Positions 5,090 through 30,539 of a DNA stretch of 32,046 nucleotides are shown piece after piece. Location: positions 1 through 32,046 of the IMG/VR virus record IMGVR_UViG_3300020207_000100. One strand, given 5' to 3'. The position numbers were made by a program, and so were the translations under genes. The notes beneath the pieces were generated by a model. It was not told the DNA's origin. It searched no databases and was given only the letters and a program-made list of their open reading frames with translations. The DNA is from a virus. The first letter of the stretch is position 1; each line of letters begins with the position of its first letter.

Positions 5090-5568
5090 TGGCAAGAAGA
5101 AGACCACATATAGAAATTGGTAATATTGAAAAGAAAAGAGATAAGGAATCTTTTAGAACATTCTTATTAGATGTAATTAAAGATACATTTATAAAAGAGT
5201 TTACACCTACATCTATTTCCTTAAATGATGAATTGTTTACCCTTACATTAGGTCCTGTTGATAACTCAACACCATCGGATGGTGATTACACGGATTACGG
5301 TGATATAAAGGGGTATAGATTTGTTTATGAAGATTTGATTGTAGATGATGTGAAAGATTACATTGATGTATATTTATATGGAGTAAAGCAGACGGGAGAT
5401 AGGTACGAAGTTAAAATATTCAATTCTATTGGTGGTGAAATAACTACTGGTAATTTGATGAACGGTGTATCCATCAAAATCATTTTTAATCAAAGTATTA
5501 CATTAGTTCCAGCAGATGTGGTTAGAACTGACTTTGAAATTAAAGGTAAAATTGTAGAAATTGAATAA
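5089..5568 (+). CDS. Small probable virion protein with beta-rich C-terminal domain
   Basis: A 159-residue protein. A basic N-terminus (MARRRPHIEIG) leads into a helix (FRTFLLDVIKDTFIKEF, ~residues 22-38), then a beta-rich domain with YIDVYLYGVKQTGDRYEV and a C-terminus TDFEIKGKIVEIE. The pattern 'xDVYLxGVxxxxxxYxV ... IxFN...VxxxDFEIKGKIV' is one I associate with virion structural proteins of marine T4-like phages, but no precise function is known to me. It also resembles the C-terminal extension of the gp15-like protein, so the two may share a fold. Both ends are coupled by TAATG overlaps, to the preceding small gene and to the giant gene, suggesting co-expression in fixed ratio, perhaps as a base or adaptor for the giant protein. 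Confidence 0.62.
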   Translation: MARRRPHIEIGNIEKKRDKESFRTFLLDVIKDTFIKEFTPTSISLNDELFTLTLGPVDNSTPSDGDYTDYGDIKGYRFVYEDLIVDDVKDYIDVYLYGVKQTGDRYEVKIFNSIGGEITTGNLMNGVSIKIIFNQSITLVPADVVRTDFEIKGKIVEIE

Positions 5569-17500: not shown

Positions 17501-19013
17501 TAATGAAGCAAGTTGTAGTAGAGATACTGGATATATTGTAGACGCAGTTGCGACTGACTTACTATATGGTGGTAACGAAAGAAGTAGAACTGCGGGAGAA
17601 TATTACTATTTATATCCATCTGAAGCAACTACAACTCAAGCAAATCAAACAACTGATGGTGTGAAATACGCAAGTGGTATTGCACAAAAGTTAGTTCAAA
17701 ACATTGAGTTTGTAACTGCTTCCAATGAAGTATCGGCATCTTGGAACTTACTAAGAGATAACAAAGAATTTATTCAAAATGAAGTTATTGCCTTTGTATC
17801 TTCTTCTTGGAGTGGTGTTTACTACGATGAGGAAAAATGTAAAAGAGATGTTGGTTTCCTAATTGATGCTACTGCTACTGATTTATTCTATGGTGGTAAC
17901 GAAAGAAGTGTAACCGCAGGTAGTTACTATTGGAGATATCCTTCAAGAGCAACTAACAAGGGTGTACCTTCAGAAGAAAATCAATTAGACCCAACTGTTG
18001 ATGGAATTAGATATGCAAAAGGATTATCACAAAAAGTAATTCAAAATACTGAATTTACTACTCCTACTAATTCTACTTTAGTTGGTGCAGAATTATTGAT
18101 TGGAAATAAAAACTTAATTCAAAATGAAGTTATTACATTCTTATCTTCATCTTGGAGTGAATTTGAATACAATCAAGAAAAATGTTTTAGAGATGTTGGA
18201 TATATTATTGACGCAGTAAGAACTGATATGGTTTATGGTGGTAATGAAAGAAGTTTACAAGCAGGTAGATTCTATTACTACATACCTTCAGTAGCAATTA
18301 CGGAACAAAAACCACAAACAATTGATGGTATTGATTTCGCAAAAGGACTTGCTGAAAGAGTAATATTGAAAGACCAATTAACAAGAGCACCATTTAATAC
18401 AAGAGTATCGGTTGACTTGTTAAGAGCAAATAAAAAAGTATTACAAGGTAAGGCAATATCTTATACAAATGGAGCATTCCCAGACTTTGTGTACAATGAA
18501 GAAAAATGTTATAGAGATACGGGATTCATCGTAGACGCAATCGCAACAGATTTATTATATGGTGGTAACGAACGAAGTATCGAAGCAGCAAAATCATACT
18601 ATAATGGTGTGTATGGAGATGCATCCGCAGTTGTTAATGAACAAAAATACGAAACTGCGGAAACTAATAGATTTTTGAGAACTCAATTCCAGAGAATTGT
18701 AAGGAACTCTCCGTTAGAATTATTTGGTTCCTTAATAATTACTACTGGACATGACTTCTCTTATGCGGGTTCCGGTGTAACTTATAAAGCATTACCTCCT
18801 AACCAAGGTGGTGCAGGTGTACCAGACCCAACAAAAGAAATAACAGAAATAGGTGGAGGTAGAGTATTCTTTACTTCGGGTAATGAACTTGGTGACTTTA
18901 GAATTGGTGCAGGACTGGTAATTAACCAGGCAACAGGTACACTTCAGGGTCGAACATTCTCTCGTTCATTGTTCTCGTTAGTAACACCATTCTCACTTGC
19001 ACTACAAGACTAA
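5568..19013 (+). CDS. Giant modular structural (fibre-like) protein, 4481 residues
   Basis: One uninterrupted frame of ~13.4 kb. Order of parts: N-terminal SGS segment (~1-80) with GSTADTIQRITGSVEITGSL, a motif type shared with the downstream fibre protein; a right-handed beta-helix/pectate-lyase-like domain (~103-370, opening DGRSPQFPLRTIKKAAELA); then runs of a ~105-residue helical module (19 copies in four cassettes) alternating with ~45-50-residue 'SSSFAIVxDIIxNGTGSLPT' linker repeats. The linkers are interrupted by a ligand-less cupredoxin-like domain (~1155-1292), four ~75-87-residue 'FTCDxDGN' repeats, and a His-rich globular domain (~2895-3183). The C-terminus (GRVFFTSGNELGDFRIGAGL, then a Leu/Phe-rich end) resembles the end of structural proteins of T4-like cyanophages. 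It is not a typical tape measure: it has no long coiled coil or membrane segments. A huge baseplate- or head-attached fibre is the best inference. The start follows a TAATG overlap. Confidence 0.85.
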   Translation: MARLIPQKQIEEINQFKDSISVANSVFISGSLLVSQSIDIGSTADTIQRITGSVEITGSLELDGQLSFKDAQSRLDATSSFSDESVDTQRFGGISVTEFGGSDATIYVSATRGDDTNDGRSPQFPLRTIKKAAELATPGDDGRFGLDTGSNFTGFRIDVDTGNYVEDNPIELPRNTTVWGSGLRVTKIIAKNENEDLFWVNSGCYLAEMTFAGLRVYPSVDVAAKGFAIAFAPNAFITTSPYVQNCSMISNQENSFLEAYEEIPAGGGGLNVDGNRIHPDSPLASMVLDAYTQIAPNGVGCQVVGRGFIQLVSFFTNFSAYSVKVIDGGQAVLLNSNTSFGDYGMYASGSRFITGSGGNQNAFINVQNNYSIIVDTIEDGLSAIPPLVTNTENGYRATDPNVIPQYFTSADSNAEVAEIAKSDFRLVTSVIENGDTNEVALVAKSSTTGYSSASVYNISGDTQITSSLTASVSDIQKIDTNYTIVLDIIDRGNAATSSYTQVENTSASIYVGDVEQYKSGIAVTSTTKQIVGDRFDEVIDIITNGPTFADTLITNTSASFKFSSETPYETDVISSDSIVQSISESISIVYNILDNGTGSNVVPTIVPSSSIANPTVEYQNAYELLINNIPFIQEETILYLSSSWSEFEYNQETCKRDVGYIVSGAAHDLLYGGNEESVRSGIFYYQYPSDATTTQKDPTLTAIKYVRGLTENILKNKTFRDTNSDIDNGYDVLFNNKDFIREETIAYLSSSWSTFDYNEAKCRRDLGYIIDAVGTDLLYDGNERTLEAGNFYYKYPSLATTDNRTDGQKQQTLDGIKYAKRLSQKLVNNETFVTASQSIQAAADLARKNRSLIQDETITYINTKYPTFSYNEAKCRRDTGYIIDNVITDLVYGGNERSELAGLYYYLYPSIANTTQLEETLEGIRYSQGFLREIVLSNNISTPQIVLNTDGNIRVTSYTPTTGSISGGETEIQIVSQSFGIIEDIIRYGDSNVLGAIAANSSDIEWTTTSPVNTSGRNQITSSTSFDNTYTESISSNYETVIKIIESGSSITTEETIGTDSKGNPISTVGIPKNSYGDNLVKTVTGVNIPNEITIVKNTDSAIKFNNNNQYTASVTASSVEVAKVSSSFAVVSDIIEFGITGSRIISGSSDASTYFEVVTLDSNYNAFYFNKNQLSKFDDIDGKDLPEDSGSYDDGIKDPTLTLKRGELYTFSINSLNIVDGGSINPDERQPFYIKTQRKSGTEFQYTTGITNNGTTFGTLTFIVPFDAPDRLFYVNGNNVSASGVIDIVDNLPLSDTQRYIDVPSKGEIEVVYNTIDNIKVTDNIQFSSSFSASVNDTHNVSSSFATVIDVLENGLDNLPTVVSNITGSIKKSNISQYTSSTDATVGIRNIVTSSFDTIIDILENGTDNIPTLDDNVSDLIKVTSTNQLTSSVSAGDYEVGLVSSSYATIIDVLFNGLGNLPSEILNTSASIKVTNTPQYISASSVSSEEINKVSSSFAIVLDIVENGTGSIPTIVENVNENIKVGNIGQYISSSYSGSLEDVSYLSSSFAIVTSIIKNGLNSAPTLVDYTTRLTTENAIASYEILKENIDFIQEETIAYLSSSWSTASYDEQKCRRDVGFIVSGAAEDLIWNANSASVVNGKFYFENPSLAETSQINQTLDGINYASRLAQKLIQNIEFVTSSEERLLTQTLLTENTPFIQNETISYLSSSWSTFDYNEVTCKRDINYIIDAVKTDIVYGGNERSANAGEFYYLYPSDATGSQLQQTLDGIDYARRLADKVIQNVEFITSSNEASASHQLLRDNKQFIQDETIAYISASWSDFDYVESTCKRDVGYIIDAVATDTLYGGNERTVEAARYYYLYPSDATGSQLSQTTDAINYARRLSENIIVNTQFASAPFSRTNGYDLIFKNRNLIQTEVVEYISSSWADFEYDDVKCARDVGYILDAVSTDLLYGGNERSRVAGEFYYLYPSDATGSQLTQTVDGVKWAKSMTDEILQNNLFVTASEQKLAVASLITENKQLIQDETIAYLSSSWSTFDYNESKCKRDVGYILDAVVTDFVYGGNERSAKAGEFYYLYPSEATGSQLSQTSDGVSFASRLTNKLITNTTLVSPSIERQSTYDLLFENKSFIQDEVISYISSSWSGFDYIESKCRRDTGYIIDAVATDTLYGGNERSVTAGEFYYLFPSEATGSQLQQTLDGVRHAAGVADKLIENTIFTTASLDKKQSYDLILDNKDLIQDNVIDFIDQTYPYFTYNRTKCRRDTGYIIDAVVTDLLYGGNQRSVVAGVYYYLYPSEATTTQIIETVQAIRYADSISKKVVQNEELVTPSISKNTENNIRFTNSTQYTDSLAISGSEVLEISSSFETVTGIITDGVKSFTPTDASYDPSSGDFVITIANHSLSTSNGIWIKPNSFTFTCEMDGNRTEHILPSLGQPAYNNRLPITATTSDTITVNVGKSGPNIEFNPTNASYDPATGDFVVTVGTHSLSVGEGIVMEPESFAFTCDMDDNQSVKSYPRVGIDPKAVRSIPLTAVTDTTLTFNVGASGPNKYFTPVSASYNALTGDMTLTVSESFGLGVGRSVVLEDESFAFTCDQDGNTTTHSYPRPGSDPYAGKSIVITSVGTTTHTITDAPYDSATGDVTITIANHGFSNGDYIKLDDNSLTYTCVLDGNTTTKSYPRPNYDYPSGRWLEISNVTTNTFDINIGSSPYVGAHTFVSATSDGLERQDGTFTINVGNAGSASGSLHTFVSASNNAVKHEPQSVHTFVSASNGALKHLPQSTHTFVRTVENSISTVPYETKNIESLTKVNNIEQFTLSTSGSSTEVGIVSASIDLINDIIRLGTDNIPFTIAKHFQTSELDTPQQLTTGSYTQITGPTLDSEYNNGSIISLTGDGSDFFKKEVTVNGVRIVVAGDVGGQTAVPDAFTEKVARMFELFTDPSGSGINETFQRNLIKTLSGDSGTYHAGLPTIQRVARGAGSDYTPNFLDDAGILYWNLTNLLDTHVQNDMVWYLNSTGDISGSGDIDAQEVIEHIFHTLHMHGLPADDIKLYSYLASDWQTGDLYLAMEEAYDAGLWDSSGYGGNSWKTDSDAFEVAAKEYLYLLNFSMFEYTDLWENGSLSPEWDDSMRTQAGILANNPLGYAFHNTYISPTISKPSLATIRSIFQDGDLGDPTIAGESGYVVTPTGTYDVTDELVIVSSSVKIVNDIIQSGTGSLPTQISNTSNTIKVGTVDQFIGVQSGSLTEIDLVKNRAGIIENVVQNGTGSLPILVRTNSDITNLIKYTDSSQITGSSGDKVQEKIISSSFGIVVDILNNGTGSLPTLVDYETRIDAPKSVNAYNLLKDNIEFIQDETIAFLSSSWTEFDYNEAKCRRDLGFIISGAAEDLIWNANSSSIVNGKFYYEYPSQATGSQLQQTLDGIIYASNMAQNIVRGRTYVTASQNVSASFELLRNNREFIKEETIAFVSSSWSDFYYSESKCRRDTGYIVDAIATDLLYGGNERSTIAAEYYYRYPSAAIVGGVPNENQQKDPTVTAINYIKGLVGELVSGSTFVSPSNEVEYTYDSIRENRQFIQNETVAFINAKYPDLIYNEASCSRDTGFIVDAIATDLRWGGNQRSITAGEFYYKFPSKAISSQASSTIDGVVYIKDLIESIANKETLSVPQRTLNTDSNIKFFTHNQFTGSLSGSLENIAFVSSSIDIVTTIIANGTGSYETASLYGVRSTDPSTLAAYEIIKENIDFIKDETIAYLSSSWSTSSYNEEKCKRDVGFIISGAAEDLVYNTYSASIVNGKFYYEYPSEANGTGSQINQTLDGIFYASRITQKLIQNIEFETASLEVSSSYNLIRENRQFIQSESISYLSSSWSSFDYNEEKCKRDITHIIDAVSTDILYGGNERSITAGNFYYKYPSSATTAQVDPTTTGINYAGDLMENLIQNNEFVTATAERIAGNKTLLENRSFIQNEVIAYISSSWSGFEYNEASCSRDTGYIVDAVATDLLYGGNERSRTAGEYYYLYPSEATTTQANQTTDGVKYASGIAQKLVQNIEFVTASNEVSASWNLLRDNKEFIQNEVIAFVSSSWSGVYYDEEKCKRDVGFLIDATATDLFYGGNERSVTAGSYYWRYPSRATNKGVPSEENQLDPTVDGIRYAKGLSQKVIQNTEFTTPTNSTLVGAELLIGNKNLIQNEVITFLSSSWSEFEYNQEKCFRDVGYIIDAVRTDMVYGGNERSLQAGRFYYYIPSVAITEQKPQTIDGIDFAKGLAERVILKDQLTRAPFNTRVSVDLLRANKKVLQGKAISYTNGAFPDFVYNEEKCYRDTGFIVDAIATDLLYGGNERSIEAAKSYYNGVYGDASAVVNEQKYETAETNRFLRTQFQRIVRNSPLELFGSLIITTGHDFSYAGSGVTYKALPPNQGGAGVPDPTKEITEIGGGRVFFTSGNELGDFRIGAGLVINQATGTLQGRTFSRSLFSLVTPFSLALQD
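5874..6677 (+). other. Right-handed beta-helix-like domain of the giant protein (residues ~103-370)
   Basis: The domain opens with ATIYVSATRGDDTNDGRSPQ and FPLRTIKKAAELA, the usual entry of phage and bacterial right-handed beta-helix domains (YVs..GsDs.DG...PfkTI..A...A). It continues with short strand-turn units rich in Asn and Gly (NTTVWGSGLRVTKI, LFWVNSGCYLAEMTFAG, FITTSPYVQNCSMIS, GRGFIQLVSFFTNFSAYSVK). Such domains often bind or cut polysaccharide in phage tailspikes; I see no obvious catalytic set, so a structural role is equally likely. Confidence 0.65.
7419..8399 (+). repeat. Module cassette 1 of the giant protein (3 copies)
   Basis: Three tandem copies of the ~105-residue module 'NxxFIQxETIxYLSSSWSxFxYNExxCKRDVGYIxxAVxTDLLYGGNERSxxAGxFYYxYPS'. 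Copy 1 is the start-cap type (IVSGAAHDLL); copy 3 is the end-cap type, with NTKYPTFSYNEAKCRRDTG in place of SSSWS. The cassette follows SSIANPTVEYQNAYELL and exits into STPQIVLNTDGNIR. Confidence 0.85.
9030..9443 (+). other. Cupredoxin-like domain lacking copper ligands (giant protein, ~1155-1292)
   Basis: A beta-rich insert between linker repeats has the same layout as the three cupredoxin domains of the fibre protein: a start of the type 'VxTLDSNYNAFYF', PTLTLKRGELYTFSINS, PFYIKTQRKSGT, TFIVPFDAPDRLFYV, then a final strand SGVIDIVDN. The positions that would carry Cys, His and Met are Val1276, Asn1279 and Ser1282, so it should not bind type-1 copper. It is a degenerate or purely structural member. 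Confidence 0.55.
9540..10310 (+). repeat. Linker repeats 'SSSFAIVxDIIxNGTGSLPT' (giant protein)
   Basis: Five near-tandem units of ~45-50 residues follow the pattern '(V)SSSFA(T/I)V(I/L)D(V/I)(L/V)ENGxxxxPTxVxNxxxxIKVxxxxQYxSS'. Similar single units occur before cassette 1 (from ~6820), after cassette 1 (~8490-9000), after cassette 2 (~12600, ~14060), before cassette 3 (~15170-15560) and between cassettes 3 and 4 (~16640-16710), roughly fifteen in all. They always occupy the space between module cassettes. Length and Ser/Thr/Asn richness suggest rigid beta-rich spacers. Confidence 0.75.
10311..12563 (+). repeat. Module cassette 2 of the giant protein (7 copies)
   Basis: Seven tandem copies. 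The first is the start-cap type (FIVSGAAEDLIWNANSASVV); the middle five are close to consensus, several sharing GEFYYLYPSDATGSQL; the last is the end-cap type (IDQTYPYFTYNRTKCRRDTG). It enters from LVDYTTRLTTENAIASYEIL and exits through TPSISKNTENNIRF. This is the longest cassette, and its middle copies are the most alike, suggesting the most recent duplications. Confidence 0.85.
12711..13935 (+). repeat. Four 'TFTCDxDGN' repeats followed by HTFVSA repeats (giant protein)
   Basis: Four repeat units begin at about 12711, 12969, 13230 and 13455 (86, 87 and 75 residues for the first three). Each contains 'ASYDPxTGDxVxTI', then 'xSFxFTCDxDGNxTxxSYPRxGxDP', then a closing strand 'TxTTxTxNVGxS'; each has a single Cys. 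They run into four HTFV units spaced ~17-35 residues apart. I know this repeat type only from marine phage structural proteins and cannot name a function; a beta-rich spacer is likely. Confidence 0.7.
14250..15116 (+). other. His-rich globular domain of the giant protein (residues ~2895-3183)
   Basis: This ~289-residue segment breaks the repeat pattern and looks globular: it is rich in Trp/Tyr/Leu/Asp, starts GDGSDFFKKEVTVNGVRIVV, and contains a His cluster in a helix, E3034-H3035-IF-H3038-TL-H3041-M-H3043. Downstream are acidic/aromatic stretches (SDWQTGDLYLAMEEAYDAGL, AAKEYLYLLNFSMFEY, LWENGSLSPEWDD). The EHxxH arrangement plus later Glu/Asp residues could bind a metal, as in zincin-like hydrolases, but this is not the canonical HExxH and I cannot assign a family. 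Function is unknown. Confidence 0.6.
15579..16559 (+). repeat. Module cassette 3 of the giant protein (3 copies)
   Basis: Three copies: start-cap (FIISGAAEDLIWNANSSSIV), a middle copy with an insertion in the tail (AAIVGGVPNENQQKDPT), and an end-cap (INAKYPDLIYNEASCSRDTG). It enters from LVDYETRIDAPKSVNAYNLL, close to the entry of cassette 2, and exits through VPQRTLNTDSNIKF, close to the exit of cassette 1. Confidence 0.85.
16755..18710 (+). repeat. Module cassette 4 of the giant protein (6 copies)
   Basis: Six copies: start-cap (FIISGAAEDLVYNTYSASIV), four middle copies (the fourth of the cassette with a tail insertion NKGVPSEENQLDPT like that in cassette 3), and an end-cap (TNGAFPDFVYNEEKCYRDTG) whose tail diverges (SYYNGVYGDASAVVNEQKY) into the C-terminal region of the protein. 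Confidence 0.85.
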
Positions 19014-19919: not shown

Positions 19920-22900
19920 ATGAGTCAATTATTAAGTGGAAAAGTTAGAGTAATCAGACCGAGTGATGTATCGGTTGATAGATACGAGTTCTTAGAACTT
20001 GCGGAGGCAGAACCTAATTTAGGTGTACCTATTAGTGGGAGTCTGTCATCGGGTTCTATCGCACTTGTTGCTTCTGATGCTGATGGTAATAGACTTTTCG
20101 TAACTAAAATACAATTAGAAGAATTTACGGGTTCTTTTAGTGGTTCATTCGCAGGAGATGGTTCTGAATTAAATAACTTACCTGATACTTCATTATTAAG
20201 AAGTGGTTCGGCATCTGCATCAATCGCACCAAACACAGGATTCTTAGTAAATGTATCTTCATCATTTGATGGGGACATGGACATTAATGGTGATGTTAGA
20301 ATTACTGGTGATTTATTAGTAGATAATAGAATTGTAGCAAGAGAAATACTTGTTGAAATTATTTCTTCTTCAATTATTTTCTCAAGTGGTTCAAATCGAT
20401 TTGGAAACGATGTAACCGATTTACAAGAATTTACGGGTTCACTATCCATTTCAGGTTCTTTTGGTCTTAGAGGTGATGCAAATGTAACTGGTTCGGTCTT
20501 TGTTACAAATGATATAGAGGTAAACGCAGTTTCCGCATCATTCTTTAGTGGTAGTGGTAGAGATTTATTTGATATTCCACAATCAGCACTTTCAGAAGAT
20601 GCCTCTTTAATTGCAAGTGGAGCAATTACCGCATCAACAGCAGACAATCAATTTAGAGTTACTTCCGTTGAAAGTGGTTCTTTATTTGATGGTGATGTAA
20701 AACTTGTAACGGGTTCGGTATTTAGTGGTAGTGGTAGAGATTTATTTGATATTCCAAGAAGTGCATTAACTGAAGACGCACTTTTATCATCTTTCATAGC
20801 AAGTGGTTCAGTAACCGCATCAGTTGACCCTGATTTTGGATTTAGATTAGAGGGTACTGATAGAGCAGAATTTAGTTCTTCTTTATTTGTAGAAGGTGGA
20901 GTATCCGCATCAGTATTTAGTGGTAGTGGTCAAGGACTTTTTGATATTCCTCGTTCAGCATTAACCGAAGACGCATTATTAACTGATTTAATAACAAGTG
21001 GTTCGGTAACAGCATCGGTTTCACCAGATGATGGATTTGTAGTAACATCCGAAGAAAGTGGTTCACTTTTTATTGGTGATGTAAAACTACAAAGTGGTTC
21101 GGTATTTAGTGGTTCGGGTAGAGATTTATTTAATATACCTCGTTCGGCACTCACCGAAGATGCTTTATTATCTTCATTTATAGTAAGTGGTTCAGTAACT
21201 GCTTCTGTTTCACCAGATGATGGATTTGTAGTAACCGCAGTTGAAAGTGGTTCAACATTCTTTGGTGAAGTTAGAGTAGTTAGTGGAAGTTCTTTTAGTG
21301 GTAGTGGTGAAAAGTTATTTGATATACCTCTTGCAGCATTATCAGATGAAACACAACAAGCAATTAACGCTGCGATTGCAGCAGAGGCAAAATTATTAGC
21401 AACGGGTTCGGTTACTGCTTCGGTAGACCCTGAAGATGGGTTTATAGTAATATCTGAAGCAAGTGGTTCTACATTTACGGGTGAATTAAGATTAACATCG
21501 GGGTCTGACTTTAGTGGTTCGGGTGCAAAATTATTTAATATTCCAAGAACTGCACTTACTCAAGATGCTTTAATTTCTTCATTCATCGCATCGGGTTCAG
21601 TAACAGCATCGGTAGACCCAGAAACCGGATTCAAAGTAGAAGACTTTGGTTCGGGTATATTAGGAACAAGGTCAGAATTTAGTGGTTCTGTATTTGTATC
21701 AAGAAATGTAAGTATTGGAAATGACTTAGATGTAGTTGGTGCAATATCTGGTGCGTTCTTTAGTGGTAGTGGTAGAGATTTATTTGATATTCCATTATCT
21801 GCTTTCGCAGAAGAAGTTGTTGCTTCAACAAGAATACAACAAGGTAATGTAACGGCATCGGTTTCTAATGAAGATGGATTCAAAGTTAAATCATTAGATA
21901 GTGGTTCTCAATTCACAGGTTCAATAGATGTACTTGGTGGAATTTCTATTAGTAGTGGTTCGGTATTTAGTGGTAGTGGTGCAGAATTATTTGATATTCC
22001 AAGAACCGCACTTACTGAAGATGCTTTACTTTCCGCATTTATCGCATCGGGTTCAGTAACGGCATCTACATCACCAGATGATGGATTCGTAGTAACTTCA
22101 GTCGATAGTGGTTCTACTTTCTTTGGAGAAGTAAGAGTACAATCAGGTTCTGCTTTTAGTGGTTCGGGTGAAAAGTTATTTAACATTCCCGTAGCAGCAA
22201 TTGCAGATTTAGATACATCAAAAATATTTAGTGGTTCAGTAACAGCATCTACATCACCAGATGACGGATTTGTAGTAACTTCGTATGATAGTGGTTCAAC
22301 ATTCTTTGGTGATATAAAACTATATACTGGTTCATTTAGTGGTAGTGGTGCTAATTTATTTAATATACCAAGAAACGCATTAACTGAAGATGCCTTAGAT
22401 TCAAATAGAATTATTAGTGGAGCATTCTCTGCGTCAATTGACCCCAAGACTGGACTTACTGTAAACGCAAGTGCATCAATTGATGGTGATTTGGTAGTAG
22501 CAGGAGCAATTGTTTCTAATGAACTTTATACGAATTATATAGCAACTACAATAATCTATTCTTCGGGTTCAAATCAATTTGGAAATGATTTAAGTGATAG
22601 ACAAGAGTTTACTGGTTCGGTATTTGTAACTAACTCTTTAGATGTTGATGGTGTAATTAGTGGTGATGGTAGTGGACTATTTAATATTCCACAAGCAGCA
22701 TTATCAGATGATTCCCCAAGAATTGCAACAGGTTCGGTATCCGCATCAGTATTTGAATATAGAGAGTTCCTTGTTGCCTCATCTGAAGGTTCAGTTCGTT
22801 CTATATTTAGTGGTTCGATAGATACTCAAAATTATATTTCTGCATCATTATTTAGAGGTGATGGTAGTGGTTTATTTAATATTCCACAATCCGCACTTTC

Positions 22901-25900
22901 AGAAGATGCATCAAGAATAGCATCAGGTTCAGTAACAGCATCGGTTTCTCCAAATGAAGGATTTATTGTAAATGAGTTTGGTAGATTTGAAGATGATTTA
23001 AGAGTAAGTGGTAGTTTTATAGTATCTGCCTCAAATCAAATTGTTCCTACGGGTTCTTTAGATACTCACTTCTTTGTATACAATGTTGGTAATACTGCGT
23101 ACTCAATCGATGGTAGATTGAATCCAGATTTAGTATTAGTTAAAAATCTTGCATACGAATTTGAAATATCAGCATCAGGACATCCTTTCTACTTAAAAAC
23201 CGCAGCAGGAACAGGAACTGGTAACGCACTTCCATTTACAAACAATGGTGGAACGAGTGGTTCTATTTTCTTCTCTGCATCTGCACAAGGTACATATTAC
23301 TATAATTGTGAAAATCATGCCGAAATGGCAGGTACAATCTATGTTGTAGATGAATATGTACAAAGTGGGTCAATAGAATTATACAATGATACTAAAATAG
23401 AGGGTGATTTAGACCTAAATGGAAACTTAGATGTACAAAGTAGAATAGACTTTGGAACTACAATAGTTGGACCTAAGGCAGTAATAACCCAAGTATCTGC
23501 ATCTTTCTTTAGTGGTAGTGGTAGAGATTTATTTGATATTCCTATTTCACAAGATGCAAGGGATTTCCCACTACAAGCAGCAATTGCAACTGGTTCGGTA
23601 ACGGCATCACTATCACCTGACTTTAGATTTGAAATGAATGCTACCGCATCTATTAGTGGTGGATTAAATGTTGGTGGTAATGTTAAAACTACTGGTTCTT
23701 TATTAGTATCGGCATCATTTGAACCATTTGAAGATATTACAAGTCTAAATGTAGATGTTCAAAACTTTGATGGTAGTAACAAATATGTTATCAATTCAGA
23801 AAGACAACCCACATTAGAATTCTTAGTTGGTTCAACTTATACATTTTGGCAAACGGGTAGTAATAACCTAACACATGATTTAAGATTATCTACAACTTCA
23901 GATGGTACTCATAATAGTGGTACTGTGTATACGGGAAGTGTAGATACTGGAAGTATAGAAGCAGGGGAAAGTGGTTCAAGAGTAATTATTGATGTTAATT
24001 CGAACACACCAACAACTCTTTATTACTATTGTATTAATCACTCTGGTATGGGTGGTCAAATTAATGTACTTAGTGAAGAACCAACTAATGCTAATATTGT
24101 ATTTGATGGTAGAGTTGATATTAGTGATAATGTAACGGTTGAAAAGACTCTAAAGGCAGACAAATTAGTTGCCAATGAAATAAGTGGTAACTTTAGTGGT
24201 TCGGGTAGAAATTTATTTGATATTCCTCGTTCTGCATTTACTGGTGACGCATTTAGAATCGCATCTGGGTCTGTAACTGCATCGGTAACACCTGATGATG
24301 GATTTGTAGTTGAATCAATAGATAGTGGTTCTCGATTAATTGGTGATGTACAAATAACTGGTTCAACTATTATTGATACCAACTTAGATGTAGAGGGATT
24401 AACTACATTACAAACTTTATCAGCACCAAATAGTAATACATTTGGTTCTACAACAGAATCGTTACAACAAATAACAGGTTCGGTTGATGTAACTGGTTCA
24501 ATAAATGTAACGGGTTCAGTTCTCGCAACTGAATTTGTGGGTGATGGTTCTAAATTAACTGGTGTAATCGCAGAAAGAGCAGAAGATACTCCATTGATTG
24601 TTAGTGGAGGTGTAACCGCATCAGTATCACCAGAATTTGGATTTAGAGTAGAATCTCAAGCAAGTGGTTCTGAGTTTACTGGTTCAATAGATGTAGATGG
24701 AGACTTAAAAATTACAGGTATCTATACGGGTGATGGTAGTGGACTTACAAATATTGATATTGCTAATTTAGCAATTGATTCATCTCGTATCTTTACTGGT
24801 TCAATAACTGCATCAGTTGACCCCGAAGGATTCTTTAGAGTTGAAGGAGAGGGTGCAACACCCGTAACATCTGAATTTAGTGGTTCGGTTCTTGTTAGTG
24901 GTTCAATCACTGCTACAACATACTTTGGTGATGGTTCTAATTTACAAAATGTACAAGCAGCAGCAGCACCAAAAATAGCAAGTGGTTCGGTAACAGCATC
25001 AGTATCACCGGTATTCGGATTTAGAGTTGAATCTGAAGATAGTGGTTCTGAGTTTACTGGTTCGGTTGATATTAGTGGTTCATTATCAGCATCTTTATTT
25101 AGAGGTGATGGTAGTGGTCTATTTAACATCCCCGCAGAATCCTTAACTGACCTTGAGTTAGATAGAATTAAATCGGGTTCGGGTCTTGCAATTATTGACC
25201 CGAATGAAATGAATGTTAATGTTAGATTAACCGCATCAGTATTTGCTGGTGATGGTTCTGAACTATTTAACATTCCCGCAGAATCCTTAACGGACTTACA
25301 ATTAGACAGAATTACATCAGGTTCGGCATTTGCAATCATATCACCTGATAAAGGTTTAGAAATATTTACACCAGCAGACAAGGTTGATATAACTGCTTCA
25401 CTTAATGTTAGTGGTGCATTAAATGTACAAGATGGTGATTTAATCGTAGAGAGTGGTGGTGTAATATATGGTGATGGTGCAGGACTTAGAAATATTAATA
25501 TTGCAAACTTAGCATTTGAAACAAATCTACTTCAAAGTGGTGCCTTCACTGCGGAAATTTCACCTGACTTTGGATTTGTTGTAAATGCATCAGCATCAGT
25601 TAGTGGTAATTTAAGTGTAGAAAATACTATATTTGCTCCAAGATTTGAAGGTGGGTTATTTAGTGGTTCACTTAAAGGTCCTTATGAGGGAGAAGGTGAC
25701 GCAGAAGATAGAGAAATACTAATATTTGACCAATCGTTAAATAAGTTTGTACCAGTTCCTGAATCAACACCAACAACAACGGTTCCATTTAGTGATGTAA
25801 CTCAAGTAACTGTTGTTCACAACTTTGATTTAGATTATCCAATTGTACAAGTTTATGAAACAGGTTCAAACTCACAACTAATTCCTGCTTCTATTGAATC

Positions 25901-28900
25901 TATTGACAATAATACAGTAAAAATTACATTCAGTACACTAACGAGTGGACAAGTTGTTGTTGGTAGTGGTGGTTCTAAGATTAGTGGAGCAGTTAGTGGT
26001 GATAATGTAATTGGAATAGTAAACTCGGCATCAAGAGCAATAACTGCAGAACAAGCAGACTTAGCACTTGGAGTTGTAGGTTTAGATTCTGCATCTATCG
26101 CAGCAATCCAAGATTTAGAAAACTTTATAAGAAACGAACAAACTGCCTCAATGACAGTTTTATCGGCATCTTACGCAGTCACTGCTTCATTCGCATTGAA
26201 TGGTGGTGGAGGTGGTGGTAGTGGAGACTTCCTTGGTACTGCATCGTTTGTAACATCATCTGATGTATATGGTCCATTTGGAAGTGATAGTATTCAATCA
26301 GCATCTTATTCAAATTACGCAGTAACTGCCTCTTATGCTATAAACGCAGTATCTGCTGAAGATTATGTTAGAAATGACCAAACCGCATCTATGACGGTTC
26401 TTTCTTCATCATTTGCATTAACCGCATCATTCGCACTAAATGCAGGTGGAGGAGTTGGTACAGGTTTCCCATTCTCGGGTTCAGCAGAATTAACTGGTAG
26501 TTTGAATATATCAGGTGACTTAATTGTTAGTGGTGGTGCATTTATAGAAGATTTACCAGTAGGTAGTTCATCTACTATTATTTCATATGACCCAACTAAT
26601 GGTAGGTTAGAACAACAAAGTATAACTATTGCAAGTGGTACATCTGGTACGGCAGGTACAACTGGTACTGGTGGTTCATCGGGTTCAAGTGGAAGTAGTG
26701 GAACATCAGGTACATCAGGAACATCTGGTACAACCGGTTCTGAAGGTACTTCGGGAACATCGGGTACGAGTGGTACAAGTGGAACAAGTGGTACATCAGG
26801 TACATCAGGAACATCAGGTTCTTCGGGTTCTGCTGGTACGAGTGGTACAAGTGGAACAAGTGGAACGGCAGGTACATCTGGAACTTCAGGAAGTTCAGGA
26901 ACTTCGGGTTCAAGTGGAACTTCGGGTACAAGTGGTAGTTCTGGTTCAAGTGGTACTTCGGGTACAAGTGGTAGTTCAGGTTCCGCAGGAACAAGTGGAA
27001 CTTCGGGAAGTTCGGGAACTTCGGGTACATCTGGTAGTTCAGGTTCAAGTGGTACTGCCGCAGAAGACCCTGTTACTGATATTTTCATAGTAACTGCCAA
27101 TGGTTCTAATTTCTACAATATAGATGGAGTTAGACAACCAACTCTAACACTATTACGAGGATTTACTTATGAGTTTGATGAAAGTGATGCTACAAATAGT
27201 GGTCATGCTATAGCATTATCAACAACTTCTGATGGTACACATGGTGGAGGTAGTGAATATACAGTAGGTGTAACGAGAACGGGAAGTCCAGGTGTAAGTG
27301 GAGCAGAATTAAGATTTAAGGTTCCTGATAACGCACCAAATACATTATACTATTATTGTGTTAACCACACGGGAATGGGTGGTACACTTTTAATTGATAC
27401 TCTTTCAAGTGGTACATCTGGTAGTTCAGGTACTTCAGGAAGTTCAGGAACAAGTGGTACAACGGGTTCTGCTGGTACGAGTGGTACATCTGGTACGAGT
27501 GGTACAAATGGTTCTTCAGGTAGTTCTGGTTCATCGGGTTCATCTGGTTCAAGTGGAACAAGTGGTTCTTCTGGTTCATCAGGAACAAGTGGTTCTTCGG
27601 GTTCTGATGGTTCAAGTGGAACAAGTGGAAGTTCGGGAAGTTCAGGAACTGCTGGTTCAAGTGGTACGGCAGGTTCAAGTGGAACAAGTGGAAGTTCGGG
27701 AAGTAGTGGAACCGCAGGAACAAGTGGTTCAAGTGGTTCTTCTGGTTCAGGTGGAGAAAGTGGTACATCTGGTACATCAGGTTCTTCGGGTACAAGTGGT
27801 ATAGATGGTGAAGATGGAACAAGTGGTACATCTGGTGTGAGTGGAACTTCAGGAACGAGTGGTTCTGATGGTATTGATGGTACAAATGGTACAAGTGGTT
27901 CAACGGGTTCAGCAGGAACGAGTGGTACAAGTGGTACAACTGGTACTTCGGGTTCAAGTGGAACATCTGGTAGAGATGGTACATCAGGTACATCAGGTAG
28001 TTCGGGTAGTTCGGGTACAACTGGTTCTGATGGAACATCAGGAACATCAGGAACAAGTGGAACGAGTGGTACAAGTGGAGACCCTGGTACAAGTGGTACT
28101 TCAGGAAGTTCAGGAACAAGTGGAACGAGTGGTACAACTGGTTCTGATGGTACAAGTGGAAGTAGTGGCACAAGTGGAACATCTGGTACAAATGGTACTT
28201 CAGGAAGTTCAGGAACAAGTGGAAGTAGTGGTACAACCGGTACTTCGGGTTCAAGTGGCACAAGTGGAACATCTGGTGAAGATGGTACATCTGGAACGAG
28301 TGGAACGAATGGAACTTCGGGAACTTCGGGAACGAGTGGATTAGGTACAGATGGAACTTCAGGTTCTTCTGGTACGAGTGGAGAGACAGGAACAAGTGGA
28401 ACAAGTGGTACAGATGGAACCTCTGGAACTTCGGGAACAAGTGGTTCAACTGGAACCGATGGTACGAGTGGAAGTAGTGGTACAAGTGGTACAAGTGGAA
28501 CTTCAGGAACCTCTGGTAGTTCAGGTTCTTCAGGAACAAGTGGAAGTAGTGGCACAAGTGGAACGAGTGGAAGTAGTGGTACGAGTGGTTTAGATGGTAC
28601 ATTATTTGGTTCATCAGGAACCTCTGGTACTTCAGGAACATCTGGTACATCGGGTACAAGTGGAAGTACGGGTACTTCTGGTACGAGTGGTCAAGATGGA
28701 ACATTCTTTGGTTCATCTGGTACAAGTGGTACAACTGGTTCCGATGGTACGAGTGGAACAAGTGGAACAACTGGTACATCAGGAACTTCGGGTTCTGCTG
28801 GTACGAGTGGTTCAAGTGGTTTAGATGGAACATTCTTTGGAAGTAGTGGAACTTCAGGAACATCTGGTACTTCGGGTACAACAGGTACATCTGGAACAAG

Positions 28901-30539
28901 TGGAACTGCTGGTACGGCAGGTACAAGTGGTGTTGATGGTACATTATTTGGAAGTAGTGGTACGAGTGGAGAAACTGGAACTTCAGGAACAACTGGTACG
29001 AGTGGTACAAGTGGAACGCAGGGTACATCGGGTACAAGTGGTGTAGATGGTACTTTATTTGGTAGTTCAGGTTCAAGTGGAACTTCAGGAACATCAGGTA
29101 CAACCGGTACATCTGGTTCAAGTGGAACTTCAGGAACATCTGGTTCTTCGGGTGTAGATGGTACTTTATTTGGTTCAAGTGGTTCGAGTGGAACGAGTGG
29201 TACATCGGGTACTTCGGGAACAACTGGTACGAGTGGTACAAGTGGAACGAGTGGTCAAGATGGTACTTTATTCGGTTCAAGTGGTTCAAGTGGAACCGCA
29301 GGAACGAGTGGTTCAAACGGTTCATCTGGTACATCGGGAACTTCTGGAACAAGTGGAACTTCTGGTACGAGTGGTCAAGATGGTACTTTGTTTGGAAGTA
29401 GTGGTACAAGTGGTACAAGTGGTACAACTGGTACATCAGGAACTTCGGGCACACGAGGTACATCGGGTACTTCTGGTCAAGATGGTACTTTATTTGGTTC
29501 ATCTGGTACTTCAGGTACATCGGGAACCTCTGGTACAAGTGGTGAAAGTGGTTCAAGTGGAACTTCTGGTACAAGTGGTACTTCAGGTTTAGATGGTACT
29601 TTATTCGGTTCAAGTGGTTCAAGTGGTACAGCAGGTACAACTGGTTCGGAAGGGACTTCAGGTACAAGTGGTGTAAGTGGTTCAAGTGGAACTTCTGGTA
29701 CGAGTGGTCAAGATGGTACTTTATTTGGTTCAAGTGGTAGTTCAGGTACTTCAGGAACATCTGGAACTTCAGGTACAAGTGGTTCAACTGGAACCAATGG
29801 TACAAGTGGAACTGGTGGTACTTCAGGTTTAGATGGTACTTTGTTTGGAAGTAGTGGTTCAAGTGGAACAAGTGGTGTTAGTGGTACAACCGGTACTGCA
29901 GGTACATCAGGAACTTCGGCAGCAGGTTCGAATGGTACTTCAGGTACTTCAGGTTTAGATGGTACTTTATTTGGTTCAAGTGGTTCGAGTGGAACGAGTG
30001 GTACATCTGGTATCAATGGTACAAACGGAACATCTGGTGTAAGTGGAACAAGTGGTTCATCGGGTAGTTCTATACCTTTAAGTGGTACAACCAATAATGG
30101 TTTAACTACATATAACAATGCTTTAGCAGGATTGGATGTAGAGAGTGGACTAACTTATGATGGTAATACATTAGATGTAACTGGTATCATTGACGCATCA
30201 GTATCTATTCATACAACATTATTTGAAGAATTAGTAAGTGCAGAAGGAACGGGTGGTAATGTAACATTGGATTTAACATCAGCAAACAACTTTACATATA
30301 CGGTTAATACAAATGCTACATTTACATTCTCAAACCCACCATCAAATCCAAAAGCATTAGGATTTACACTACTTTTACAAAATGGTGGTAATTATACAAT
30401 AGGATGGCCTGGTACAGTTCAATGGGCAGGTGGTGTAGCACCCGCATTAACTTCAAATGGTTATGATGTATTAGTATTCTACACATTTGATGGTGGAACA
30501 AATTATTGGGGATTCCTTAGTGGAGCAGATTTAAGATAA
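19920..30539 (+). CDS. Giant fibre protein with cupredoxin domains and collagen-like stalk, 3539 residues
   Basis: Likely a long tail or baseplate fibre. Order: short N-terminal region (~1-70); a long SGS/GSG beta-repeat region (~75-1860) with ~16 'SGSGxxLF(D/N)IPxxALxEDA' units; two cupredoxin-like domains embedded in it (~1048-1145, ~1276-1384); a 'VTVVHNFDLDYPIVQVYETG' strand domain (~1955-2015) of a type common in phage tail fibres; 'TASMTVLSASYAVTASFALN' repeats; a collagen-like Gly-Thr-Ser stretch (2240-2379); a third cupredoxin-like domain (2387-2494); a longer collagen-like stalk (2498-3383); and a C-terminal knob (~3385-3539) ending GYDVLVFYTFDGGTNYWGFL, a widespread phage fibre tip. 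The motif SIIFSSGSNRFGNDVTDLQE near 155 recurs near 875. No strong ribosome binding site is seen (weak GAG before the ATG). Such length far exceeds T4 gp37 (1026). Confidence 0.88.
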   Translation: MSQLLSGKVRVIRPSDVSVDRYEFLELAEAEPNLGVPISGSLSSGSIALVASDADGNRLFVTKIQLEEFTGSFSGSFAGDGSELNNLPDTSLLRSGSASASIAPNTGFLVNVSSSFDGDMDINGDVRITGDLLVDNRIVAREILVEIISSSIIFSSGSNRFGNDVTDLQEFTGSLSISGSFGLRGDANVTGSVFVTNDIEVNAVSASFFSGSGRDLFDIPQSALSEDASLIASGAITASTADNQFRVTSVESGSLFDGDVKLVTGSVFSGSGRDLFDIPRSALTEDALLSSFIASGSVTASVDPDFGFRLEGTDRAEFSSSLFVEGGVSASVFSGSGQGLFDIPRSALTEDALLTDLITSGSVTASVSPDDGFVVTSEESGSLFIGDVKLQSGSVFSGSGRDLFNIPRSALTEDALLSSFIVSGSVTASVSPDDGFVVTAVESGSTFFGEVRVVSGSSFSGSGEKLFDIPLAALSDETQQAINAAIAAEAKLLATGSVTASVDPEDGFIVISEASGSTFTGELRLTSGSDFSGSGAKLFNIPRTALTQDALISSFIASGSVTASVDPETGFKVEDFGSGILGTRSEFSGSVFVSRNVSIGNDLDVVGAISGAFFSGSGRDLFDIPLSAFAEEVVASTRIQQGNVTASVSNEDGFKVKSLDSGSQFTGSIDVLGGISISSGSVFSGSGAELFDIPRTALTEDALLSAFIASGSVTASTSPDDGFVVTSVDSGSTFFGEVRVQSGSAFSGSGEKLFNIPVAAIADLDTSKIFSGSVTASTSPDDGFVVTSYDSGSTFFGDIKLYTGSFSGSGANLFNIPRNALTEDALDSNRIISGAFSASIDPKTGLTVNASASIDGDLVVAGAIVSNELYTNYIATTIIYSSGSNQFGNDLSDRQEFTGSVFVTNSLDVDGVISGDGSGLFNIPQAALSDDSPRIATGSVSASVFEYREFLVASSEGSVRSIFSGSIDTQNYISASLFRGDGSGLFNIPQSALSEDASRIASGSVTASVSPNEGFIVNEFGRFEDDLRVSGSFIVSASNQIVPTGSLDTHFFVYNVGNTAYSIDGRLNPDLVLVKNLAYEFEISASGHPFYLKTAAGTGTGNALPFTNNGGTSGSIFFSASAQGTYYYNCENHAEMAGTIYVVDEYVQSGSIELYNDTKIEGDLDLNGNLDVQSRIDFGTTIVGPKAVITQVSASFFSGSGRDLFDIPISQDARDFPLQAAIATGSVTASLSPDFRFEMNATASISGGLNVGGNVKTTGSLLVSASFEPFEDITSLNVDVQNFDGSNKYVINSERQPTLEFLVGSTYTFWQTGSNNLTHDLRLSTTSDGTHNSGTVYTGSVDTGSIEAGESGSRVIIDVNSNTPTTLYYYCINHSGMGGQINVLSEEPTNANIVFDGRVDISDNVTVEKTLKADKLVANEISGNFSGSGRNLFDIPRSAFTGDAFRIASGSVTASVTPDDGFVVESIDSGSRLIGDVQITGSTIIDTNLDVEGLTTLQTLSAPNSNTFGSTTESLQQITGSVDVTGSINVTGSVLATEFVGDGSKLTGVIAERAEDTPLIVSGGVTASVSPEFGFRVESQASGSEFTGSIDVDGDLKITGIYTGDGSGLTNIDIANLAIDSSRIFTGSITASVDPEGFFRVEGEGATPVTSEFSGSVLVSGSITATTYFGDGSNLQNVQAAAAPKIASGSVTASVSPVFGFRVESEDSGSEFTGSVDISGSLSASLFRGDGSGLFNIPAESLTDLELDRIKSGSGLAIIDPNEMNVNVRLTASVFAGDGSELFNIPAESLTDLQLDRITSGSAFAIISPDKGLEIFTPADKVDITASLNVSGALNVQDGDLIVESGGVIYGDGAGLRNINIANLAFETNLLQSGAFTAEISPDFGFVVNASASVSGNLSVENTIFAPRFEGGLFSGSLKGPYEGEGDAEDREILIFDQSLNKFVPVPESTPTTTVPFSDVTQVTVVHNFDLDYPIVQVYETGSNSQLIPASIESIDNNTVKITFSTLTSGQVVVGSGGSKISGAVSGDNVIGIVNSASRAITAEQADLALGVVGLDSASIAAIQDLENFIRNEQTASMTVLSASYAVTASFALNGGGGGGSGDFLGTASFVTSSDVYGPFGSDSIQSASYSNYAVTASYAINAVSAEDYVRNDQTASMTVLSSSFALTASFALNAGGGVGTGFPFSGSAELTGSLNISGDLIVSGGAFIEDLPVGSSSTIISYDPTNGRLEQQSITIASGTSGTAGTTGTGGSSGSSGSSGTSGTSGTSGTTGSEGTSGTSGTSGTSGTSGTSGTSGTSGSSGSAGTSGTSGTSGTAGTSGTSGSSGTSGSSGTSGTSGSSGSSGTSGTSGSSGSAGTSGTSGSSGTSGTSGSSGSSGTAAEDPVTDIFIVTANGSNFYNIDGVRQPTLTLLRGFTYEFDESDATNSGHAIALSTTSDGTHGGGSEYTVGVTRTGSPGVSGAELRFKVPDNAPNTLYYYCVNHTGMGGTLLIDTLSSGTSGSSGTSGSSGTSGTTGSAGTSGTSGTSGTNGSSGSSGSSGSSGSSGTSGSSGSSGTSGSSGSDGSSGTSGSSGSSGTAGSSGTAGSSGTSGSSGSSGTAGTSGSSGSSGSGGESGTSGTSGSSGTSGIDGEDGTSGTSGVSGTSGTSGSDGIDGTNGTSGSTGSAGTSGTSGTTGTSGSSGTSGRDGTSGTSGSSGSSGTTGSDGTSGTSGTSGTSGTSGDPGTSGTSGSSGTSGTSGTTGSDGTSGSSGTSGTSGTNGTSGSSGTSGSSGTTGTSGSSGTSGTSGEDGTSGTSGTNGTSGTSGTSGLGTDGTSGSSGTSGETGTSGTSGTDGTSGTSGTSGSTGTDGTSGSSGTSGTSGTSGTSGSSGSSGTSGSSGTSGTSGSSGTSGLDGTLFGSSGTSGTSGTSGTSGTSGSTGTSGTSGQDGTFFGSSGTSGTTGSDGTSGTSGTTGTSGTSGSAGTSGSSGLDGTFFGSSGTSGTSGTSGTTGTSGTSGTAGTAGTSGVDGTLFGSSGTSGETGTSGTTGTSGTSGTQGTSGTSGVDGTLFGSSGSSGTSGTSGTTGTSGSSGTSGTSGSSGVDGTLFGSSGSSGTSGTSGTSGTTGTSGTSGTSGQDGTLFGSSGSSGTAGTSGSNGSSGTSGTSGTSGTSGTSGQDGTLFGSSGTSGTSGTTGTSGTSGTRGTSGTSGQDGTLFGSSGTSGTSGTSGTSGESGSSGTSGTSGTSGLDGTLFGSSGSSGTAGTTGSEGTSGTSGVSGSSGTSGTSGQDGTLFGSSGSSGTSGTSGTSGTSGSTGTNGTSGTGGTSGLDGTLFGSSGSSGTSGVSGTTGTAGTSGTSAAGSNGTSGTSGLDGTLFGSSGSSGTSGTSGINGTNGTSGVSGTSGSSGSSIPLSGTTNNGLTTYNNALAGLDVESGLTYDGNTLDVTGIIDASVSIHTTLFEELVSAEGTGGNVTLDLTSANNFTYTVNTNATFTFSNPPSNPKALGFTLLLQNGGNYTIGWPGTVQWAGGVAPALTSNGYDVLVFYTFDGGTNYWGFLSGADLR
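23061..23354 (+). other. Cupredoxin-like domain 1 of the fibre protein (residues ~1048-1145)
   Basis: Beta-rich domain with NPDLVLVKNLAYEFEISASG before His1088, and a final loop YYYNCENHAEMAGTIYVVDE holding Cys1130, His1133 and Met1136. The set His ... Cys-x2-His-x2-Met is the type-1 (blue) copper ligand set, with the loop spacing seen in amicyanin. Copper binding is inferred, not shown. Confidence 0.72.
23745..24071 (+). other. Cupredoxin-like domain 2 of the fibre protein (residues ~1276-1384)
   Basis: Same layout as domain 1: RQPTLEFLVGSTYTFWQTGS, His1319 in LTHDLRLSTTSDGTH, and LYYYCINHSGMGGQINV with Cys1371, His1374 and Met1377. All four candidate copper ligands are present in amicyanin-like spacing. 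Confidence 0.75.
26637..27056 (+). repeat. Collagen-like (Gly-Thr/Ser-Ser)n stretch 1 (residues 2240-2379)
   Basis: About 140 residues with Gly at almost every third position, mostly as GTS, GSS and GTA triplets and without proline. It is separated from the longer second stretch by the third cupredoxin domain. A collagen-like or polyglycine-type trimeric shaft is likely. Confidence 0.85.
27078..27401 (+). other. Cupredoxin-like domain 3 of the fibre protein (residues ~2387-2494)
   Basis: Inserted between the two collagen-like stretches. It has RQPTLTLLRGFTYEFDES, His2429 in SGHAIALSTTSDGTH, and LYYYCVNHTGMGGTLLI with Cys2480, His2483 and Met2486. It is very similar to domain 2 (STTSDGTH, YYYCxNHxGMGG), pointing to duplication within the gene. 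Confidence 0.75.
29155..29206 (+). repeat. 52-bp exact direct repeat, copy A
   Basis: By eye, 52 bases starting TAGATGGTACTTTATTTGGT and ending GTGGTACATC are identical to 29956-30007, 801 bp downstream. The flanking bases differ on both sides. It encodes the DGTLFGSSGSSGTSGTS segment in the same frame. Confidence 0.8.
29956..30007 (+). repeat. 52-bp exact direct repeat, copy B
   Basis: Second copy of the repeat at 29155-29206, in the last GTLFG unit of the stalk. Recombination between the copies would remove or add 801 bp (267 codons, in frame). Confidence 0.8.
30072..30539 (+). other. C-terminal knob of the fibre protein (residues ~3385-3539)
   Basis: After the stalk comes a ~155-residue beta domain: SGLTYDGNTLDVTGIIDAS, then NVTLDLTSANNFTYTVNTNA, TFTFSNPPSNPKALGFTLLL, TIGWPGTVQWAGGVAPALTS and GYDVLVFYTFDGGTNYWGFL. 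This arrangement is common at the ends of phage fibres and collagen-like phage proteins. A trimerising tip or receptor-contact domain is the likely role. Confidence 0.75.

What the first reader, a model, noticed from the sequence alone, without database searches (positions are those of the whole stretch)
23061..27401. Three type-1 copper-site cupredoxin domains in a phage fibre
Three domains in one fibre protein keep a complete candidate blue-copper ligand set with the same spacing: H1088/C1130/H1133/M1136, H1319/C1371/H1374/M1377, H2429/C2480/H2483/M2486. Spacing Cys-x2-His-x2-Met is that of amicyanin. Conservation of all four ligands in three diverged copies implies selection for metal binding. 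A copper-binding virion fibre could scavenge copper, stabilise the fibre, or contact host respiratory or metal-uptake proteins; these roles are speculative.
Basis: partly seen in the sequence, partly recalled or inferred. Interest (0 to 1): 0.75.

Follow-up and report, generated by a model that had tools for sequence, protein, structure and literature searches.

The report
Blue-copper-type domains in phage fibre
A giant tail fibre of a marine T4-like phage carries three protein modules that fold like blue copper proteins and keep the complete copper-holding residues; the same unnamed module sits in the tail machinery of many ocean phages and in surface-type proteins of marine bacteria and archaea, although copper binding itself is still unproven.

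Summary

AlphaFold2 models of D3 (pLDDT 95) and D1 (pLDDT 82) are cupredoxins. D1 matches rusticyanin at Z 13.1, 2.0 Å over 101 residues; D3 matches the N-terminal cupredoxin domain of a nitrite reductase at Z 9.0.

Among 239 non-identical relatives, 220 keep His + CxxH + axial Met (Gln in three), 18 keep none and one keeps only the first His. The residues are kept or lost as a set, as expected for one metal site.

The module is widespread but unnamed. It forms the C-terminus of the cyanophage baseplate/tail-fibre connector gp9 (phrog_677), occurs in pelagiphage and methylophage fibres, and ends lipoprotein-like proteins of SAR86, K189A and Marine Group II. I found no paper describing it in phage tails.

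Best explanation: a mobile, copper-site-competent cupredoxin module used as a rigid surface/docking domain, probably metallated after lysis. Copper loading and function remain untested. A fourth, ligandless copy lies in the neighbouring fibre.

The parts
19920..30539 (+). Giant collagen-like tail fibre ORF (3,539 aa) that carries the three domains
   Evidence: collagen PF01391 and tail-fibre PHROGs
23070..23354 (+). D1: cupredoxin domain, ligands H1088 (23181-23183), C1130 (23307-23309), H1133 (23316-23318), M1136 (23325-23327); lies among the GSGRDLFDIP shaft repeats
   Evidence: AF2 pLDDT 81.7; rusticyanin Z 13.1, rmsd 2.0
23757..24074 (+). D2: cupredoxin domain, ligands H1319 (23874-23876), C1371 (24030-24032), H1374 (24039-24041), M1377 (24048-24050)
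   Evidence: profile E 2e-39; fold inferred from about 42-48% identity to D3
27084..27401 (+). D3: cupredoxin domain between two collagen-like (GTSGTS) stretches, ligands H2429 (27204-27206), C2480 (27357-27359), H2483 (27366-27368), M2486 (27375-27377)
   Evidence: AF2 pLDDT 95.4; NiR N-terminal cupredoxin domain Z 9.0, rusticyanin Z 8.3-8.7
9132..9443 (+). D0: ligandless paralogue of the domain (Q/N/N/A at the four positions) in the 4,481-aa neighbouring fibre
   Evidence: (E 2.7e-25)
5568..19013 (+). Neighbouring giant structural ORF (4,481 aa) that hosts D0
26629..27070 (+). Collagen-like (Gly-Xaa-Yaa) stretch before D3, approximate limits
27405..30140 (+). Collagen-like stretch after D3, approximate limits

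Best explanation
D1, D2 and D3 are members of an unnamed marine cupredoxin family with a complete type-1-copper ligand set (His, Cys, His, Met). They are mobile extracellular modules inserted into phage tail fibres and baseplate connectors, and shared with surface lipoprotein-like proteins of marine bacteria and archaea. Shown here: sequence, predicted fold, all-or-none ligand conservation, distribution. Inferred: the site binds a metal, most likely copper; because virion proteins fold in the host cytoplasm, where free copper is vanishingly low, loading would happen after lysis in seawater. The bound metal locks the ligand loop, and the module acts as a rigid docking domain on the fibre, for host-surface contact or fibre-baseplate contact. 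In cyanophage gp9 the module occupies the C-terminal end, which in T4 gp9 faces the long tail fibre (recalled knowledge). Ligandless copies would be versions that kept only the docking fold.
For: Exact ligand sets and no other Cys in the fibre. Cupredoxin models: D3 pLDDT 95.4, D1 81.7; most top hits are copper proteins, and for D1 the match is strong. Ligands align with rusticyanin and plastocyanin ligands. Survey of 239 non-identical copies: 220 complete, 18 with none, 1 with only the first His; in the earlier set of 213, 2 partial versus 24 expected from shuffles, minimum 18. Three cellular copies have Gln as axial residue, an alternative known from stellacyanins. The Met, second-His, Cys and first-His columns rank 3rd, 4th, 6th and 11th in conservation over 91 representatives. 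Purifying selection: dN/dS 0.02, 0.10 and 0.15 for D1-D3 against relative L001, CxxHxxM kept. Surface context: gp9 C-terminus (phrog_677), tail fibres, lipobox-like N-termini in 33 of 80 cellular ORFs, cadherin or collagen partners.
Against: No metal measurement exists. Model coordinates were not readable, so ligand distances are unmeasured. Ligandless copies persist in related phage proteins and in this phage's other fibre, so the fold can be used without metal. The site could hold Zn(II) or stay empty. Pfam Copper-bind is below its cut-off. Independence of ligand losses rests on a weakly resolved tree. The loci were found partly with a CxxH-containing pattern, which favours ligand-bearing copies; whole-record searches of 23 reference phages give the same split. 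There is no direct evidence on docking.
Confidence: 0.6

Rival explanations
1. Ig-like decoration only: the module is just a beta-sandwich adhesion domain, and the conserved His/Cys/Met form a structural network or bind Zn(II); copper is irrelevant in the virion.
For: Ligandless copies do exist in phage proteins, including D0 next door. Several proteins with the module also carry Ig, cadherin or collagen repeats. Phage proteins fold in cytoplasm with almost no free copper (general knowledge).
Against: Ligands are kept or lost as a set; Met or Gln at the axial position is typical of copper sites rather than zinc sites; many cellular relatives look exported, where cupredoxins normally work.
Confidence: 0.2
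2. Copper Trojan horse: the copper-loaded module on the fibre docks on host outer-membrane copper receptors or copper-delivery partners, as proposed for iron in phage tails and siderophore receptors.
For: Azurin, a cupredoxin, has been reported to bind the TonB-dependent copper receptor OprC (discussed in PMC8610252). Iron-binding tail fibres and the Trojan Horse hypothesis exist (PMC11705849).
Against: PMC8610252 saw no complex of purified functional OprC with azurin. The module also occurs in phages of picocyanobacteria and SAR11 and in archaeal proteins, where such a receptor is not evident.
Confidence: 0.1
3. Redox role: the fibre copper site exchanges electrons with host surface redox proteins and senses a live, respiring host.
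For: The nearest folds (rusticyanin, plastocyanin, auracyanin, NiR domain) belong to electron-transfer proteins.
Against: No dedicated redox partner was identified near the phage genes or next to the cellular lipoprotein-like genes read. The domains lie far apart on a long fibre.
Confidence: 0.05
4. Copper scavenging or buffering by virions.
For: Several sites per fibre (up to 54 per virion if trimeric with six fibres; assumption).
Against: At 1e10 virions per litre that is about 1 pM of sites, small against nanomolar seawater copper (own estimate from general knowledge).
Confidence: 0.03

Closest known systems
Rusticyanin (e.g. PDB 2cal, 1rcy)
   Same: Best whole-domain fold match of D1: Z 13.1, rmsd 2.0 over 101 residues; ligands align in the profile alignment
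   Different: Rusticyanin is a free periplasmic electron carrier with a longer Cys-to-Met loop; here the loop is C-x2-H-x2-M and the domain is part of a virion fibre
N-terminal cupredoxin domain of three-domain copper nitrite reductase (PDB 2dv6, 6tfo)
   Same: Best match of D3 (Foldseek E 2.6e-4; Z 9.0, rmsd 3.2 over 99 residues); also a cupredoxin domain fused into a larger protein
   Different: Enzyme context, no phage context; 16-18% identity
Amicyanin ligand loop (CxxHxxM)
   Same: Identical Cys-His-Met spacing; PDB chimeras with the amicyanin loop appear among the fold hits
   Different: For D3, amicyanin scores TM about 0.5, no better than rusticyanin and with weaker E-values
phrog_677, cyanophage baseplate wedge tail fibre connector (gp9)
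   Same: Its C-terminal quarter (profile about 305-410 of 412) is this module: D3 E 2e-18, D1 3e-14, D2 5e-11; the gp9 copies read keep H/C/H/M
   Different: The window protein is a giant collagen-like fibre, with the module inserted three times
T4 gp37 / R22Y HxH iron-binding tail fibres (PMC11705849)
   Same: Metal-binding residues in a phage tail fibre
   Different: Iron held by HxH motifs; no HxH motif is found in this fibre; here the site lies within one cupredoxin domain
Lipoprotein-like proteins of SAR86, K189A and Marine Group II archaea (unnamed)
   Same: Same module, about 45-60% identical to D3, mostly at the C-terminus; one MGII protein pairs it with collagen repeats like the phage fibre
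   Different: Cellular proteins with a lipobox-like N-terminus

Membership tests
Cupredoxin superfamily | Greek-key beta-sandwich cupredoxin fold | tested here: met
   AF2 models of D3 and D1; top structural matches mostly cupredoxins, D1 Z 13.1 to rusticyanin, D3 Z 9.0 to NiR domain. D2 by homology to D3
Type-1 copper proteins | His...Cys-x(n)-His-x(n)-Met/Gln ligand set in sequence | tested here: met
Type-1 copper proteins | Ligand side chains converge on one metal | not tested
Type-1 copper proteins | Binds copper with ~600 nm charge-transfer band and small EPR hyperfine splitting | not testable with these tools
   Needs purified protein
Pfam PF00127 Copper-bind (plastocyanin/azurin family) | Score above gathering cut-off | tested here: not met
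   14.1 bits against 21.2; so not filed as a member of this Pfam family
Amicyanin | C-x2-H-x2-M loop | tested here: met
Amicyanin | Closest whole-domain match is amicyanin | tested here: inconclusive
   Amicyanin appears at TM about 0.5 for D3, behind the NiR domain and rusticyanin by E-value; D1 is closest to rusticyanin
phrog_677 gp9 connector | C-terminal module homologous | tested here: met
phrog_677 gp9 connector | Match including the N-terminal gp9 part | tested here: not met
   Only the C-terminal part of phrog_677 is matched by the domains; the full window fibre does not list phrog_677
HxH iron-binding tail fibre (T4 gp37 type) | HxH motifs | tested here: not met
   None among the 11 His of the fibre

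The most novel reading that the evidence does not exclude
Many tailed phages of the ocean's dominant bacteria carry copper-loaded blue-copper domains in their host-attachment machinery, including a conserved one in the gp9 baseplate connector, and copper occupancy or redox state affects adsorption.
Probability: 0.15. Interest if true: 0.87.

Novelty: new variant of a known kind. Interest (0 to 1): 0.62.

Why it matters
If the site is filled, the attachment organelle of abundant marine phages contains a metalloprotein family so far known mainly as electron carriers, which would add copper to iron as a metal built into virions and give a directly testable handle on host attachment. Even without copper, the result identifies a widespread unannotated module, explains the C-terminal domain of the cyanophage baseplate connector gp9, and links phage fibres to surface-type proteins of SAR86 and Marine Group II.

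Tried and rejected
Chance motif: rejected, expectation about 2e-5 for the whole fibre (counts). Recent tandem triplication: not supported; D1 and D0 group with cyanophage copies in an 18-row phage set (support 95), D2 and D3 fall outside it (tree weakly resolved). Iron HxH fibre: no HxH. The alignment with ligandless members (A1) was too diverse for a contig scan. Sequence profiles against PDB stayed at E 0.08 or worse for copper proteins; with D1 alone a nitrite reductase reached 0.004, below repetitive 'Pizza' design proteins whose match looks compositional. The paired-loss test on the tree had only one pair on well-supported branches and is uninformative. Searches for papers joining cupredoxin or plastocyanin-like domains with phage tails, virions or cyanophages found none that describe this; subscription journals and preprints are not held. 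In one search the printed composition expectation used a file with several proteins and is not used here. In one search fetched copies of the window's own domains (L219-L222) are labelled as reference phages; one search leaves them out.

Full report
Observation. The fibre ORF 19920-30539 encodes 3,539 residues. All twelve named residues are correct, and the three Cys ligands are the only cysteines in the protein. The window is a fragment of a T4-like myovirus: gp23 major capsid protein and gp15 sheath stabiliser are present, the best-covering named gp23 match is from Flavobacterium phages at 53% identity, and G000 is itself a 32 kb virus record. A fourth copy, D0, without any of the ligands, sits in the neighbouring 4,481-aa fibre.

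Fold. With a 73-row alignment, D3 was modelled at mean pLDDT 95.4. Foldseek against the PDB ranks the three-domain nitrite reductase of Hyphomicrobium first, then rusticyanin, and mostly copper proteins after that; VIA-align places the match on the N-terminal cupredoxin domain (chain residues 25-138) at Z 9.0 and gives rusticyanin Z 8.7, modest values. D1, the most divergent copy, was modelled at 81.7 and matches rusticyanin at Z 13.1, rmsd 2.0 over 101 residues, followed by nitrite reductase, laccase and auracyanin domains. D2 is 42-48% identical to D3 and was not modelled. Profile alignments put the first His, the Cys and the second His on the ligands of rusticyanin and plastocyanin. Ligand distances in the models could not be read.

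Selection on the site. Relatives were collected from viral contigs, cellular contigs and 23 whole reference phage records and scanned with an iterated profile. Of 239 non-identical copies, 220 keep the first His, CxxH and an axial Met or Gln, 18 keep none and one keeps the first His only. At 95% non-redundancy (213 copies) two are partial, against a shuffled mean of 24 and minimum of 18; both have a single stray His. Three copies replace Met by Gln, the axial ligand of stellacyanin-type proteins (general knowledge), and three use a longer Cys-His-Met loop (L004, L208, L258). The ligand columns rank 3rd, 4th, 6th and 11th in conservation over 91 representatives that include ligandless ones. Against the close relative L001 the domains have dN/dS of 0.02, 0.10 and 0.15 and keep CxxHxxM. 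Caveat: the scans used a CxxH-containing pattern; the whole-record search of reference phages did not, and shows the same split.

Where else the module lives. tblastn finds it in 346 phage records, mostly Synechococcus and Prochlorococcus phages, also Pelagibacter and Methylophilales phages; each of 23 records read has one to five matches. In cyanophages it is the C-terminal part of gp9, the baseplate wedge tail-fibre connector; phrog_677 positions about 305-410 are this module. A pelagiphage fibre has the gp9/10 N-terminal domain followed by it. Among cellular contigs, 33 of 80 ORFs with the module have a lipobox-like N-terminus, in SAR86, K189A and related gammaproteobacteria and Marine Group II archaea; some carry cadherin or collagen repeats. 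Some other cellular-contig hits look like phage genes in assembled genomes. Pfam, NCBIfam and PHROGs have no family that names the module as a copper protein.

History. In a weakly resolved tree, D1 and D0 fall in an all-phage group of 18 with cyanophage copies (support 95), while D2 and D3 fall elsewhere among phage and cellular copies. The three copies are therefore probably not one recent triplication, and phage and cellular copies are interleaved, which suggests exchange.

Mechanism. Shown: fold (by prediction), ligand set, all-or-none conservation, location in attachment proteins. Inferred: metal binding, copper as the metal, loading after lysis, docking function. A phage protein folds in the cytoplasm where free copper is very low, so the virion would leave the cell with an empty or zinc-filled site and could pick up copper in seawater (general knowledge). 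With up to 54 sites per virion (assumed trimer, six fibres) and 1e10 virions per litre the sites amount to about 1 pM, so bulk copper scavenging is an unlikely purpose. A docking or rigidifying role fits the gp9 location, the adhesion-like partners and the ligandless paralogues; a copper-receptor Trojan horse is possible but its closest precedent, azurin on OprC, is disputed.

Novelty. The fold and site are known; the setting is not described in the held library. I rate it a new variant of a known kind.

Noticed in passing
L145:4818-8262 and L151:4878-8368: In SAR86 a 161-174 aa lipoprotein-like ORF made of little more than this module lies directly upstream of a 966-996 aa ORF with no Pfam match; the order is conserved in two genomes.
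   Followed up: partly
L255, L261, L264: Some cyanophage copies carry a shared insertion of about 45 aa between the first-His strand and the CxxHxxM half; L264 keeps all ligands, L255 only the first His, L261 none.
   Followed up: partly
L181, L185, L186: SAR92/Porticoccaceae copies have Gln in place of the axial Met.
   Followed up: no
L200:3130-9552: Cyanophage S-TIM54 2,140-aa virion protein combines esterase-like, subtilase and Ig domains with this module.
   Followed up: no
window 23910-23912 and 27240-27242: D2 and D3 have an extra His in a GTH[GN] turn (H1331, H2441), common in the family but absent in D1; possible second metal contact.
   Followed up: no
window 5568-19013: The 4,481-aa ORF contains about 20 copies of a roughly 108-aa repeat with the core C[KR]RDxGYIIDAV...YGGNERS.
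   Followed up: no
L207:5992-6330: Cyanophage PSS2 has a stand-alone gene of 112 aa that is just this domain, without the His/Cys/His ligands.
   Followed up: partly
window 27361-29871 (-): An 836-aa open frame opposite the collagen-like repeat is most likely a mirror of the repeat, not a gene.
   Followed up: no
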